Assembly: GCA_016744695.1 (NCBI GenBank)
Contig: JADGDV010000010.1
Location: 1-64,000 of the forward strand
DNA length: 64,000 bases
From: Hahellaceae bacterium
GTDB lineage: Bacteria; Pseudomonadota; Gammaproteobacteria; Pseudomonadales; Oleiphilaceae
Reading direction: 5' to 3'
Positions 44,627 through 54,397 of the stretch are shown here, piece after piece. A model generated the notes under the pieces. It saw only the letters and a program-made list of their open reading frames with translations. It was not told the DNA's origin and did no database searches. Within the stretch, counting starts at the first letter, position 1, and each line of letters opens with the position of its first letter. The translations under genes and the position numbers were made by a program.

Positions 44627-45535
44627 CTATAAGAGTAGCAATACAATCTCGCTTATTCCAAACACTAAATATAGTCGGCCTGTTTTAGGGGGGAGGTTTT
44701 TATTATTTTGGTCGTTATTATATTCAGCAGAGGAGGGCAGTGCTTTTATTATATCCATAGCGAATAGTGTGGCAGGAAATAATATTAAGACCTTTAGCCA
44801 TTCGCCACTTAGGGTGATGATGGGGATGATCGAAAGAAAGCCAAAAATAATACATAAGATATAAAGTCTTTGGCCCACTCGGTAACCTAGGCGTACGGTA
44901 AGGGTTTTTATACCTTCTTTCTTATCGCTAGTGTAATCGCGTAATTCATTGGAAAGCAGAAGTGCTGAGGTGAGAAAGCTGGCTGGAAGGGATATGATTA
45001 TTGCGTATAATTGATGCTCCCCTATTGCTGCATAAAAAGCGCCATAAATCATTAATACGCCCATAAAAAAGAACACTAATATTACTCCAAGCCCCCTGCG
45101 TTTGTAGTTTATAGGTTCAGTTGTGTAAAAAAGTGCTCCGCAGCCTCCGATAATGGCCAATATAAGTAAAACCCCCCCTACCTGAGAGACTAAATAAAGA
45201 CCTATTGCTGAGCATAACAAAAAACACGTCCAGCCTACCTTATAGTTGAATGCAATATTGCTAATGTCTTTTGGGCTTAGCTTTTTTAGTGTTACTGGGT
45301 TTTTAATGTCGGCATGATCATTAATTAAATTGACGCCAGTTTGTAATAATATGCCAGCGAGAAGTATTAAAAAAACTATACTCATGTTTAATGTCTGAAA
45401 ATTGCTTGCCGCAGAGATTCCCAGGCTGCAGGTTATAAGGGCGACGGATAAAGAAAAGGGCCTTAATGCTTTTTTAAAGTGGTACTTAGGCTGAGTGATC
45501 AGAGCTTGGTTTTTATATTGAATATATTTCATCAT
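44627..45535 (-). CDS. UbiA-family prenyltransferase
   Basis: The 302-residue protein has about eight or nine membrane segments. The first aspartate-rich motif is NLINDHADIKN (near residue 70), the second block is NELRDYTSDKKEGIKTLTVRLG (near 205), both expected to bind the prenyl diphosphate through magnesium. It is closest in look to the MenA/UbiA-like branch, but no menaquinone or ubiquinone gene is next to it, and a housekeeping UbiA normally pairs with ubiC. The aromatic acceptor is therefore unknown. Two consecutive ATGs (45535, 45532) can serve as start. Confidence 0.82.
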   Translation of the reverse strand: MMKYIQYKNQALITQPKYHFKKALRPFSLSVALITCSLGISAASNFQTLNMSIVFLILLAGILLQTGVNLINDHADIKNPVTLKKLSPKDISNIAFNYKVGWTCFLLCSAIGLYLVSQVGGVLLILAIIGGCGALFYTTEPINYKRRGLGVILVFFFMGVLMIYGAFYAAIGEHQLYAIIISLPASFLTSALLLSNELRDYTSDKKEGIKTLTVRLGYRVGQRLYILCIIFGFLSIIPIITLSGEWLKVLILFPATLFAMDIIKALPSSAEYNNDQNNKNLPPKTGRLYLVFGISEIVLLLL

Positions 45536-45590: not shown

Positions 45591-45617
45591 TAAAGTTTTA
45601 CCAGAAATTGCCGATAA
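45591..45617 (+). promoter_or_regulatory. Perfect sigma-28 (FliA) promoter before the DUF5610-type gene
   Basis: TAAAGTTT, then exactly 11 bases, then GCCGATAA reproduces the complete FliA consensus with no mismatch. The ATG at 45719 lies about 100 bases further on, on the same strand, with no other gene between. This marks the downstream gene as a late flagellar or chemotaxis regulon member. Confidence 0.85.
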
Positions 45618-45718
45618 GCTCCATATGAAGGTGTGACTTAATGGTGTTTTAGAGTCGCCTAAACGTTTTTAGTGCAAATTAGAAGAATAATACTGCTCTT
45701 ATTATTGAGGATAGAACG

Positions 45719-47059
45719 ATGGACTCTATTTCAGCCTTGTTGGGAAAGTTTGATGGTTTACCGAATAAATTTCAGCATGAAGATCATGGTAAGCATTTAC
45801 AGCAATCTTCAGGGCATCATCACGACCGGCCATCCTCCTCACAATCAAATCAAGCTTCTCTGTATGAGGTGTCTCTCAGTTTTTCAAGTTCGTCGATTTC
45901 AATGCACGATAAAGGTGTGCAGGTATTAGAGCAGGAGCTTGAAGTTCATTTTACCGGTGCCCGTTTTTCTCAGACAGCCGCGCCTTTTGTGCCGACCTTT
46001 GAACCGCCTTCTGCTGATGAAGTAGCTAATAATGTTCTTGGCTTTATTGAGAATAGAATTAAGCAAGAGTCAGATTCTGGTGCATCGCCTGAGCGTATTG
46101 ATAATCTTTTGAATCAGGCTCGAATAGGCGTGGAGCGTGGGTTTGGTGAAGCTTTAGAGCAAATCGAGAAAATAGGTTTGATGACGGATGAGCTGTCTGA
46201 AGATATTGATCGGAGTTTTGAAAAAATAAATACAGGCATTGATGATCTTGCTACCCAATATGTAGTGACGGTACCTGTTGAAAATGAATCTGATGAGGCC
46301 ACCGTCTCTGCTAACCAAAGCTCTGATGTTGAGCAGGAGAAGGTTGTCACACAAAATGAATCGTCTAGGTTGCAGGGGCGTGGGGTGAATGCGGGGTATA
46401 GTGAATTTAATGCTTTATCAGAAAGTGCCGCTATTCAGATAACCACACAAGATGGTGATGTTGTTTCATTTAACCTTGAGCAAATACAGGCCTCATTTGA
46501 GCGTGGAGAAATTTCTGGAGGGCGATTTGGTTTTGAGGCAACTCAGATGGCAGGGCAGTATGCCAGCGGGAGTTACAGTTTTTCAGTTGAAGGTGAGTTA
46601 GATGAAGGTGAGATTGAAGCGTTAAATCAATTGATGGTGCAAATAGAAGGAATGTCTGATCAATTCTTTTCGGGTGACTTTCAGGGGGCTTTTCAAAGCG
46701 CAATGGAGTTAGGTTTTGATAGTCAGGAAATTGCGGAGTTCTCGGTTAATTTATCTCAAACCAGTGTTCAGCAAGTGTCTGCTTATCAGCAGGTTGCCGA
46801 TCTAGGGGGGGCGAGCGATGTAGGAAGTGCGGCGACTAGTGGGCGTTTTGATCCTTTGTCTCAGTTCTTTGATAGTCTTCAAGCTGCCTTCGATAAGGCA
46901 AATACCTTTGCCCAGCCAGCAGATCTAGTTTCTTCACTATTTGATCGAGTTGTGGGTGATAGGATGGGGCATGAGCAGGCCTCGCCAGAGGGTGTGGATG
47001 CTACTACACCGTTTGAGCAGATGAACGAGTATGTGCATGCTTTACTTGAAAATATGTAA
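45719..47059 (+). CDS. DUF5610-type uncharacterised protein, sigma-28 regulated
   Basis: The 446-residue protein starts at an ATG with TTGAGG upstream. It is rich in Gln, Ser, Glu and Phe, has no signal peptide or membrane segment, and carries a His/Ser-rich stretch near residues 20-45 (HEDHGKHLQQSSGHHHD). Residues about 95-165 (ADEVANNVLGFIENRIKQ, SPERIDNLLNQARIGVERGFGEALEQI) resemble the DUF5610 domain of gammaproteobacteria. A second helical part follows at about 240-350. The function is unknown. The perfect FliA promoter in front ties it to flagellar or chemotactic function, and a strong terminator ends the unit, so it is monocistronic. The domain name is from memory. Confidence 0.75.
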   Translation: MDSISALLGKFDGLPNKFQHEDHGKHLQQSSGHHHDRPSSSQSNQASLYEVSLSFSSSSISMHDKGVQVLEQELEVHFTGARFSQTAAPFVPTFEPPSADEVANNVLGFIENRIKQESDSGASPERIDNLLNQARIGVERGFGEALEQIEKIGLMTDELSEDIDRSFEKINTGIDDLATQYVVTVPVENESDEATVSANQSSDVEQEKVVTQNESSRLQGRGVNAGYSEFNALSESAAIQITTQDGDVVSFNLEQIQASFERGEISGGRFGFEATQMAGQYASGSYSFSVEGELDEGEIEALNQLMVQIEGMSDQFFSGDFQGAFQSAMELGFDSQEIAEFSVNLSQTSVQQVSAYQQVADLGGASDVGSAATSGRFDPLSQFFDSLQAAFDKANTFAQPADLVSSLFDRVVGDRMGHEQASPEGVDATTPFEQMNEYVHALLENM

Positions 47060-47078
47060 GAGCTCCCCTTCTTTTTTG

Positions 47079-47107
47079 AAAAAGGCCTGACTTCATCAGG
47101 CCTTTTT
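47079..47107 (+). terminator. Intrinsic terminator after the DUF5610-type gene
   Basis: AAAAAGGCCTGA and TCAGGCCTTTTT form a 12-bp stem with a CTTCA loop ending in a T run, 20 bases after the stop. Confidence 0.93.
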
Positions 47108-47221: not shown

Positions 47222-49846
47222 ATGAAGACAGCAGCGGTACGTAAAGCGTTTCTAGACTATTTTAATCAGCAAGGGCATGAAGTTGTAGCCAGTAGTTCTT
47301 TGGTTCCGGCAGATGACCCAACGTTATTGTTTACTAATGCGGGTATGAACCAATTTAAAGATACTTTTTTAGGGCGTGAACATCGCTCTTATGTGCGGGC
47401 TACTAGCTCTCAGCGCTGTGTTCGTGCAGGCGGTAAGCATAATGACCTTGAAAATGTAGGTTATACCGCAAGGCATCATACTTTTTTTGAAATGCTGGGT
47501 AATTTCAGTTTTGGTGATTACTTTAAAAAAGAGGCGATTCGCTTTGCTTGGGAGTTTTTGACTTCTGATAAGTGGATGAATATCCCTGCAGATCGACTTT
47601 ATGTTACCGTTTATGCCACTGATGATGAGGCTTATGGTATCTGGACTAAGGATATGGGTATTCCAGAAGAGCGCATTATTCGGATTGGAGATAAGGGGGC
47701 TAAATATGCCTCTGATAATTTCTGGCAAATGGGTGATACAGGGCCTTGTGGACCTTGTACAGAGATATTTTATGACCATGGTGCTGATATTGAGGGTGGT
47801 TTACCAGGAACCCCAGAAGAAGATGGTGATCGCTTCATAGAGATCTGGAATGTGGTCTTTATGCAATTTAATCGTACCGCTGACGGTGAAATGCATCCTT
47901 TACCTAAGCCGTCTGTCGATACGGGTATGGGCTTAGAGCGTATTGCAGCCGTTATGCAGGATGTTCATAGTAACTATGAAATTGACTTGTTTCAGAGCTT
48001 ATTAGCCAGCGCATCAGCGGTGCTGGATGGCGTTGCGACCACAGAAGCGTCTTTACGTGTTATTGCTGATCACATTCGATCTTGCTCATTCTTAATTGCC
48101 GATGGTGTTATGCCTTCTAATGAGGGACGTGGTAACGTTTTACGTCGAATTATCCGACGAGCGGTACGTCATGGTAATAAATTAGGGGCTAAAACGTCTT
48201 TCTTTTATAAGCTGGTTTCTCATCTGGTTGATGTAATGGGTGAGGCTTACCCTGAGCTGGCAAAAGCCCAGCTACAAATAGAAAAAGTATTATTACAAGA
48301 AGAAGAGCAGTTTGCTAAAACCTTAGATAAAGGGCTCGCGCTGTTAGAGCAGGATATTAAAGAATTAAGTGGAACGGTTATTCCTGGGGAAACGGTATTT
48401 ACACTATATGATACTTATGGGTTTCCGGTTGATTTAACAAATGATATTGCTCGAGAGCGTGGATTAACACTTGATACTGAGGGTTATGAAAAGGCGATGG
48501 AAGCTCAGCGTGAAAGGGCTAGAGCTGCTAGTAAATTTGGCGTTGATTATAATGAAGGGCTTGTTATTGATGGCTCTACTGAATTTACAGGTTACGAACA
48601 ATTTAACGCCAAAGGTATCGTCTCTGCGGTTTTTGTAAATAGTGAGTCTGCGACGGCTGATAAAGGGCAAGAGGCTGTCGTTGTTCTTGAAGAGACACCT
48701 TTTTATGCTGAGTCTGGTGGTCAGGCGGGTGATAGCGGTATCTTGCGTTGGGATGGTGGCGAGTTTGAAGTAACGGATACGCAAAAAGAAGGGGATAATC
48801 ATCTTCATGTTGGTCGCGTGCTATCTGGTGCGCTTGCTTCAGGTCAGTCTGTAACTGCTATTGTTGACCGTGAAAAACGACAAGCAACAGCCTTGAACCA
48901 TTCCGCAACACATTTATTGCATGCCGCATTGCAAAAAGTGTTGGGTGAGCATGTGGTGCAGAAAGGTTCACTGGTTAATAGTGAGCGTTTGCGTTTTGAT
49001 TTCTCACATTTTGAGGCAGTAACGGCTGATCAATTGAAAGAAATTGAGCAAATGGTGAATCGTCAGGTGCGAGAAAATACCACGGTAGATACCGAGGTAA
49101 CTGATATGGATACGGCTCGTGAAAAAGGTGCTATGGCGCTTTTTGGTGAGAAGTATGGTGATGAAGTCCGGTTATTGAGTATGGGGACGGAATCATTTTC
49201 AGTAGAGTTATGTGGTGGTACACATGCCAAACGAACAGGTGATATTGGCAGTATTATTATTACCTCTGAGTCAGGTATCGCGTCTGGTGTGCGAAGAATT
49301 GAAGGGGTTACTGGTTGTGCTGCAGATGTATGGCTTGCCGCAGGTGAAGCTCAGTTAAAAGAAGTAGCTTCATTGGTTAAAGGTAATCGAGATAACTTGG
49401 CTGAAAAAGTTAAGAGTGCTTTAGATAAAAGCCGTTCACTTGAAAAAGAAATTGAACAACTCAAGGCTAAGTTAGCGAGTTCTGCGGGCGATGATCTAGC
49501 AGGTCAGGCTGTTGAGGTTCAGGGCGTTAATGTGCTTGCTGCAATACTTGAAGGGGCTGACCGAAAGACCTTAATGGATACTGCTGATCAGCTCAAAAAC
49601 AAACTGGGTTCTGCCGTGGTGCTTCTTGCAACCATAGATGAAGGTAAGGTTACCTTGGTGTCAGGCGTGACAAAAGACATCTCCGGAAAACTGAAAGCTG
49701 GCGACTTAATGAAAGAGGCTGCTTCAATTGTTGGTGGTAAAGGAGGTGGTCGACCTGATATGGCGCAAGGCGGCGGTACTGATCCAGCTAAGGTGCCTGA
49801 AGCGCTGGGCATGGTTAAGGCTTGGGTAGAAAGTAAGATTGGATAA
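47222..49846 (+). CDS. alaS: Alanine--tRNA ligase
   Basis: The 874-residue class II synthetase is complete. The catalytic domain has [17 protein letters not shown] and [39 protein letters not shown], and [12 protein letters not shown]. The editing domain has [13 protein letters not shown] (His pair) and [17 protein letters not shown] with the zinc ligands. The C-terminal C-Ala domain ends [17 protein letters not shown]. It charges tRNA-Ala and clears Ser/Gly mischarging. It leads the alaS-lysC-csrA row; lysC follows after 60 bases. Confidence 0.98.
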
Positions 49847-52624: not shown

Positions 52625-54397
52625 ATGACAGATGCTAAAAAACCGTTAGGTATTACCGACGTTGTTTTACGTGACGCTCACCAGTCACTATTCGCAACGC
52701 GAATGCGTATCGACGATATGTTACCCATCGCAGAAAAATTAGATAAAGTAGGCTACTGGTCCCTTGAATCTTGGGGTGGAGCTACTTTTGATACTTGTAT
52801 TCGTTTTCTTGGGGAAGACCCTTGGGATAGAATTCGCGAATTCAAAAAAGCGATGCCTAACACTAAGCATCAAATGTTGTTGCGTGGCCAAAACCTACTA
52901 GGCTATCGCCACTATGCTGATGATGTAGTTGATAAGTTTGTAGAGCGCGCGGCGGAAAATGGCGTAGACGTATTCCGTGTGTTTGATGCGATGAATGATC
53001 CTCGCAATCTTGAAACAGCACTTAAAGCGGTTAAGAAGCAGGGTAAGCACGCACAAGGTACGTTATCTTATACCACAAGCCCTGTGCACAATACTCAGGC
53101 ATGGATCTCGCTGGCTAAGCAGATCGAAGATATGGGTGCAGACTCTATCGCGATTAAAGATATGGCGGGTATCATCTCTCCATATGAGTGTTTCGATTTG
53201 GTTTCACGCCTTAAGCAAGAAACTGATCTTGAAGTTCAGTTGCATTGCCATGCAACGGCTGGTATGTCCGATATGGCGATCCTAAAAGCTATTGAAGCCG
53301 GTGTTGATCGAGTAGATACAGCGATCTCTTCAATGTCGATGACATATGGACATTCAGCAACAGAAACTGTTGTAGCGGCTCTTAAAGGAACCGACAGAGA
53401 TACAGGTCTTGATCTCTTATTGCTTGAAGAAATTGCAGCTTACTTCCGTGAAGTTCGTAAGAAGTACGCAAAATTTGAAGGTGCATTACGCGGTACCGAT
53501 TCTCGTATCTTGGTTGCACAGGTTCCTGGTGGCATGTTAACTAACATGGAAAACCAGTTGAAAGAGCAAGGCGCTGCCGACAAATTTGATGCTGTGCTGG
53601 AAGAGATTCCAAGAGTTCGTGAAGATCTGGGGCATATTCCATTGGTAACACCTACTTCACAAATTGTAGGTACTCAAGCTGTTATCAACGTGTTAACAGG
53701 CGAGCGTTATAAGTCTATATCTAAAGAAACTCAAGGTATCCTTAAGGGTGAGTATGGCGCAGCTCCTGCACCATTTAATAAAGAGCTTCAAGATAGAGTG
53801 CTTGACGGTGCCGAAGTTATTACATGTCGTCCTGCTGACTTGCTAGAAAATGAACTTGATAAAATTGTTGCTGATGTTGAAGCGCTTGCCAAAGAAAAAG
53901 GCTTCAAGCTGGCAGACAATATTATTGATGATGCGCTTAGTTATGCGTTATTCCCTCAGGTAGCTGAAAAGTTCCTTGAGAATCGTGGTAACCCAGATGC
54001 ATTTGAGCCTGTACCTACAGGTAATGAAGTGAAGGTATCTTCTGGTCCTGAGACTTATACTATCAATGTTGAAGGTCAGAATTATGTAGTGCAAGTTGAA
54101 GAAGGTGGGGATATCTCTGCTGTAGCTCCTGCTGGTGGTGTAGCGGCTCCTGTTGGCGCACCCGCTGCAGCAGTGCCTGCAGGTGGTGGTGATCCAGTTG
54201 CAGCACCTTTAGCTGGTACTATCTTCAAAGTTATCGTTGCTGCCGGACAAGCTGTTCAAGAAGGCGATGTGTTAATAATTCTTGAAGCAATGAAGATGGA
54301 GACCGAGGTTCGAGCTGCTAAAGCTGGTACAGTCGGTAGCATCAATGTTGCAGTTGGCGATTCTGTTGCAGTTGGCGACACGCTATTAACGTTGTAA
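52625..54397 (+). CDS. oadA: Oxaloacetate decarboxylase alpha chain
   Basis: The 590-residue protein has the carboxyltransferase TIM barrel ([49 protein letters not shown]), a PycB/conserved carboxylase region (residues 290-460), a Pro/Ala/Gly-rich hinge (about 500-520) and a C-terminal biotinyl domain with the biotin lysine in [10 protein letters not shown]. It transfers the carboxyl group of oxaloacetate to biotin. In the complex, decarboxylation by OadB then drives sodium export. Confidence 0.97.

What the first reader, a model, noticed from the sequence alone, without database searches (positions are those of the whole stretch)
45591..47107. Uncharacterised DUF5610-type gene under a mismatch-free sigma-28 promoter
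TAAAGTTT-N11-GCCGATAA matches the full FliA consensus. It drives a monocistronic unit of one gene (strong terminator at its end) whose product has no known function. This suggests a late flagellar or chemotaxis protein, for example an assembly, polar-placement or brake component. The product is a Gln/Ser-rich cytoplasmic protein with a His-rich N-terminal stretch and no transmembrane part.
Basis: partly seen in the sequence, partly recalled or inferred. Interest (0 to 1): 0.7.

Follow-up and report, generated by a model that had tools for sequence, protein, structure and literature searches.

The report
Conserved late flagellar gene, product likely exported
An uncharacterised bacterial gene carries the switch used for late flagellum genes, the same switch precedes its relatives in nearly every genus tested, and the protein lacks cysteine as flagellum-exported proteins do, so it is probably an overlooked accessory part of the bacterial swimming apparatus.

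Summary
TAAAGTTT-N11-GCCGATAA lies at 45591-45617, is unique in the 4.07 Mb genome, and precedes a 446-aa DUF5610 protein (45719-47059) followed by a strong hairpin terminator. Of 73 long DUF5610 proteins from 16 families, 61 have at least 10 of 12 core bases and 36 at least 11; shuffles of all 89 upstream regions give about 4.4 and 0.35. 36 of 37 genera have one. In a second, named set, 56 of 78 DUF5610 genes match a FliA pattern against 5 of 620 neighbouring ORFs. Neighbours differ between families, so the promoter travels with the gene. DUF5610 co-occurs with fliA.

"Cytoplasmic assembly, placement or brake protein" is not supported. Long DUF5610 proteins are almost cysteine-free (71/73), like exported FliD (27/28) and FliK (23/24), unlike cytoplasmic FliM (13/27), CheZ (8/17) and FlhF (0/23). 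They have a disordered N terminus, no signal peptide, a three-helix bundle and a C-terminal beta domain with no convincing PDB match. Best reading: a lineage-patchy sigma-28 gene whose product probably leaves through the flagellar export apparatus. Regulation is well supported; export is inferred; the job outside is unknown.

The parts
45591..45617 (+). FliA (sigma-28) promoter, TAAAGTTT-N11-GCCGATAA
   Evidence: Exact, unique in the genome; conserved upstream of orthologues
45618..45718 (+). Predicted 5' leader with GAGGA ribosome-binding site (transcription start inferred at about 45625)
   Evidence: Sequence; start site not measured
45719..47059 (+). Long-form DUF5610 gene, 446 aa, no cysteine, no tryptophan
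   Evidence: ORF, PF18433 E 4.2e-23, composition
45719..45991 (+). Residues 1-91: mostly low-confidence, disordered, Ser/Gln/His-rich N-terminal region; candidate export signal (inferred)
   Evidence: Mostly pLDDT below 50; N-terminal composition
46013..46264 (+). Residues 99-182: three-helix bundle, most of the Pfam DUF5610 match
   Evidence: AlphaFold2 pLDDT above 90; Pfam match residues 70-177
46385..46795 (+). Residues 223-359: conserved C-terminal domain, three strands of about 21 residues, two helices, one long strand; motifs TxxGDxV, VEGELDxxE, FFxGDxxxAF
   Evidence: Separate AlphaFold2 model of residues 216-364, mean pLDDT 89.7; conserved columns
46850..47056 (+). Residues 378-446: low-confidence C-terminal helices, weakly conserved
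   Evidence: pLDDT about 45-63
47079..47107 (+). Rho-independent terminator hairpin
   Evidence: -17.3 kcal/mol, z -3.0

Best explanation
The gene is a late (class IV, sigma-28/FliA-transcribed) member of the flagellar regulon, kept as its own one-gene transcription unit. Its product is most likely an accessory protein that the flagellar type III export apparatus sends out: made when FlgM has left and FliA is active, exported by means of its disordered N terminus without a Sec signal, and then folded outside as a three-helix bundle plus a long-stranded beta domain, either attached to the filament or hook, or released. Shown by sequence: the promoter, its conservation and its co-occurrence with fliA. 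Inferred from composition: export. Unknown: the job done outside.
For: Promoter: 68 of 89 DUF5610 genes have a site with at least 10/12 core bases against 4.4 expected, 38 with at least 11 against 0.35. Long forms: 61/73, 16/16 families, 36/37 genera; G at position 5, which was not scored when sites were chosen, is found in 91%. Named set: 56/78 DUF5610 genes against 5/620 other ORFs, Fisher p 3e-58; site-to-start distance mostly 58-59 nt in Pseudomonas. Several long forms outside the order have 10-12/12 sites. Second own-genome DUF5610 gene with a 12/12 core. Neighbours differ between families while the site stays. fliA over cut-off in 84 of 89 DUF5610-positive genomes, Fisher p 2.6e-10. Export: zero-cysteine proteins 71/73 and 69/71 against FliD 27/28, FliM 13/27, FlhF 0/23, FliK 23/24, CheZ 8/17. 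Most real cysteine-free neighbours of similar length are OprD-like porins. N termini rich in S, N, Q, P and poor in E and R; no signal-peptide-like or membrane stretch.
Against: No expression, secretion or localisation data. Short DUF5610 proteins that mostly lack strong FliA sites are also nearly cysteine-free (15/16), so cysteine loss may belong to the domain rather than to flagellar export. Cysteine exclusion is a correlate, not a test; about half of FliM and CheZ proteins also have none. No conserved export-chaperone gene next to it was noticed. The protein lacks the terminal helix pair of axial flagellar proteins. 124 of 208 fliA-positive genomes lack DUF5610, so it is not core machinery.
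Confidence: 0.6

Rival explanations
1. A cytoplasmic accessory protein of motility or chemotaxis (for example a regulator, motor brake or array-associated factor), transcribed by FliA but not exported; this is the first reader's reading.
For: Same promoter evidence. FliA also drives cytoplasmic genes such as chemotaxis genes (own knowledge). The predicted helical bundle could be an interaction module. Half of FliM and CheZ proteins also lack cysteine.
Against: Family-wide cysteine exclusion (140 of 144 long proteins, the two sets partly overlapping) matches FliD and FliK, not FlhF, FliM or CheZ. No conserved linkage to motor or chemotaxis genes. No known signalling domain.
Confidence: 0.28
2. 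A protein with no flagellar job that is only co-expressed with motility, for example a surface or biofilm factor needed in the swimming state.
For: Patchy distribution: absent from 124 of 208 fliA-positive genomes. Legionella's FliA regulon contains many genes of unknown or non-motility function (PMC5655016).
Against: Strong association with fliA and preservation of the FliA site through different genomic surroundings.
Confidence: 0.12
3. The FliA site is a chance match and the gene is not FliA-dependent.
For: The bare core motif is not enriched genome-wide over its reversed control.
Against: Conservation across 36/37 genera, and recovery of the unscored G at position 5 in 91% of sites; 56/78 against 5/620.
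Confidence: 0.02

Closest known systems
Pfam PF18433, DUF5610
   Same: Residues 70-177 match well above cut-off; the whole long-form family carries it
   Different: The Pfam model covers only the helical domain; the C-terminal beta domain conserved in long forms has no Pfam match; no NCBIfam model fits; no paper in the held library names DUF5610
FliA-dependent (class IV) flagellar genes such as fliD, flgM, fliC
   Same: Same promoter type; co-occurrence with fliA; cysteine exclusion as in FliD
   Different: Stands alone outside flagellar operons; lineage-patchy; no known flagellar protein domain
FliK (hook-length control, exported by the flagellar apparatus)
   Same: Largely disordered, cysteine-free, no signal peptide (own knowledge)
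   Different: No Flg_hook domain in the Pfam scan; FliK is a hook-stage, not a class IV, protein (own knowledge)
Chromobacterium violaceum CV_1783 (PDB 3sjr), unknown function
   Same: Foldseek hit to the whole model, probability 0.96-1.00, TM 0.50-0.62 on the target
   Different: 12-16% identity, E 0.03-0.16, absent when the C-terminal domain is searched alone; probably helical-bundle similarity only

Membership tests
DUF5610 (PF18433) | Match above the curated Pfam cut-off | tested here: met
   82.5 bits against 26.4
FliA (sigma-28) regulon | Consensus FliA promoter at a suitable distance upstream | tested here: met
   Perfect site 128 nt before ATG; family median 68 nt
FliA (sigma-28) regulon | Site conserved in orthologues beyond chance | tested here: met
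   61/73 long forms, 36/37 genera; 56/78 against 5/620
FliA (sigma-28) regulon | Genome encodes FliA | tested here: met
   fliA at G000:C2:87983-88639; 84/89 DUF5610-positive genomes
FliA (sigma-28) regulon | Transcription lost in a fliA mutant | not testable with these tools
   No expression data held
Flagellar type III export substrates | No Sec signal or transmembrane segment; disordered N terminus | tested here: met
Flagellar type III export substrates | Cysteine-free composition (correlate, not a definition) | tested here: met
   71/73 and 69/71; controls FliD, FliK, FliM, CheZ, FlhF
Flagellar type III export substrates | Export dependent on flhA/fliI | not testable with these tools
   Needs a secretion assay
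Axial flagellar proteins (rod, hook, filament) | Paired N- and C-terminal helices forming the D0 core | tested here: not met
   N terminus disordered in the model
FliK | Flg_hook (PF02120) C-terminal domain | tested here: not met
   No Pfam match other than DUF5610

The most novel reading that the evidence does not exclude
Long-form DUF5610 proteins are an unrecognised class of proteins exported by the flagellar type III apparatus in Pseudomonas, Marinobacter and other gammaproteobacteria: accessory filament-associated or released proteins with a previously unseen long-stranded beta domain, encoded outside flagellar operons and therefore missed.
Probability: 0.4. Interest if true: 0.75.

Novelty: new member of a known kind. 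Interest (0 to 1): 0.58.

Why it matters
It adds a widespread gene of unknown function to the FliA regulon of Pseudomonas, Marinobacter and many other gammaproteobacteria on comparative evidence, which makes its function directly testable in laboratory strains. If the product is exported, the flagellar export apparatus has a whole substrate class that was overlooked because its genes lie outside flagellar operons.

Tried and rejected
Pattern-based genome search with the window protein alone found no relative, and broad alignments had no searchable motif; a closer five-sequence alignment worked. Operon or neighbour inference: neighbours differ between families (OprD, BipA, MCP, CheV, AmtB, TatD, CobN), so no function from context. 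Fold comparison: neither the whole model nor the C-terminal domain has a convincing PDB relative; hits to the C-terminal domain are pore beta-hairpins and porins with TM below 0.3. PDB sequence profiles gave nothing meaningful. Literature: no held paper names DUF5610 and the searches found no FliA study covering it. His-rich N terminus as a metal site: rejected, not conserved. Axial protein and FliK membership: rejected on domain features. Genome-wide counting of the bare motif: uninformative. Pooling short and long forms: the short DUF5610-only form is a separate group that mostly lacks strong sites (7/16 at 10 or more, 2/16 at 11 or more).

Full report
Observation. The FliA site, the gene, the Pfam hit and the terminator are all present where stated. 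The full 16-base pattern is unique in the 4.07 Mb assembly. The unit is monocistronic: a divergent UbiA-type gene lies upstream, a terminator follows the stop codon and alaS starts at 47222. fleQ, fleS/fleR, fliE, fliF and fliG follow from about 56.5 kb in the window (named from their sequences) and fliA lies at contig position 87983, so in this genome the gene sits about 9 kb from a large flagellar cluster, separated by alaS, lysC and oxaloacetate decarboxylase-type genes.

DUF5610 was searched in 295 genomes of the order; 89 carry it. Upstream regions were scored against TAAA-N14..16-GCCGATAA. Observed: 14 genes with 12/12, 24 with 11, 30 with 10. Dinucleotide shuffles: 0, 0.35 and 4.05. Split by size, the long proteins (320 aa or more) give 61/73 with 10 or more and 36/73 with 11 or more, in 16 of 16 families and 36 of 37 genera; the short DUF5610-only proteins give 7/16 and 2/16. 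Position 5 of the site was not scored, yet it is G in 91% of sites, and positions 6-8 are most often T, rebuilding TAAAGTTT. The site lies a median 68 nt before the start codon.

Second set. Eighty named loci were fetched: Marinobacter, many Pseudomonas, Stutzerimonas, Zooshikella, Marinobacterium, Exilibacterium and tubeworm endosymbionts; a few are the same genomes as in the first set. A FliA pattern precedes 56 of 78 DUF5610 genes and 5 of 620 other ORFs in the same loci. That pattern was written after seeing the first scan, so it is not blind, but the same pattern was applied to both groups. In Pseudomonas the site sits 58-59 nt before the start codon in most species. Of eight sampled long forms outside the order, five carry sites of 10-12/12, and one stand-alone C-terminal-domain protein also has one (11/12, L232).

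Context. Marinobacter mangrovi has the same arrangement as the window: two ORFs at the lptF/lptG position, RDD, DUF5610, alaS and a 416-aa ORF at the lysC position. Other families have unrelated neighbours. The promoter therefore goes with the gene. fliA passes its cut-off in 84 of 89 DUF5610-positive genomes and 124 of 206 others. Of the five exceptions, three are at most 81% complete (G011, G120, G276), one carries only the short form (G016) and one is 6% contaminated (G256).

Architecture. AlphaFold2 on 45 relatives gives a mostly disordered residues 1-91, a confident three-helix bundle at 99-182, a confident beta domain at 223-359 and weak C-terminal helices. The beta domain modelled alone has mean pLDDT 89.7 with strands of about 21 residues. 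No convincing PDB match exists.

Export inference. Long DUF5610 proteins contain 0.01% cysteine against 1.27% in neighbouring ORFs; 71/73 and 69/71 have none. As a yardstick in genomes of the order: exported FliD 27/28 and FliK 23/24 cysteine-free, cytoplasmic FliM 13/27, CheZ 8/17, FlhF 0/23. Most real cysteine-free neighbouring proteins of similar length look like OprD porins, which also leave the cytoplasm. N termini are rich in S, N, Q and P and poor in E and R, with no signal peptide or membrane segment. This favours export without Sec, for which the flagellar apparatus is the obvious route for a FliA-driven gene. It is an inference: the short forms share the cysteine exclusion without a strong FliA link.

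Verdict. Late flagellar regulon member: about 0.95. Exported by the flagellar apparatus: about 0.5. Role outside: unknown.

Noticed in passing
G000:C70:53664-53987 (-); L037:1842-3683: A second, 614-aa long-form DUF5610 gene in the same genome, with a 12/12 FliA core site (54216-54242) 60 nt before its start and no cysteine.
   Followed up: partly
G000:C42:33410-33535 (-); L038: A 42-residue DUF5610-like match with a stop codon, probably a decayed or spurious copy.
   Followed up: no
G000:C41:261748-261774; L003: FliA-like site upstream of a 382-aa protein whose N terminus looks like an HPt domain.
   Followed up: no
G000:C56:42737-42764; L004: FliA-like site (spacer 16) upstream of a 111-aa probable membrane protein next to a mutM-like gene.
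   Followed up: no
L232 (G484:C13): Stand-alone C-terminal beta domain without DUF5610, with an 11/12 FliA site; the same genome has a separate DUF5610 gene.
   Followed up: partly
L129, L141, L152: Some Marinobacter species carry only a short (about 175-aa) DUF5610 protein that keeps a FliA-like site, suggesting loss of the C-terminal domain.
   Followed up: no
G000:C2:101590-101823 (-); L239:1545-3017: A second Flg_hook-domain protein (491 aa) next to a 103-aa FlhB C-terminal-like protein, apart from the main fliK.
   Followed up: no
window 44627-45535: UbiA-type prenyltransferase gene lies between the RDD gene and the DUF5610 gene; Marinobacter mangrovi lacks it at this place.
   Followed up: no
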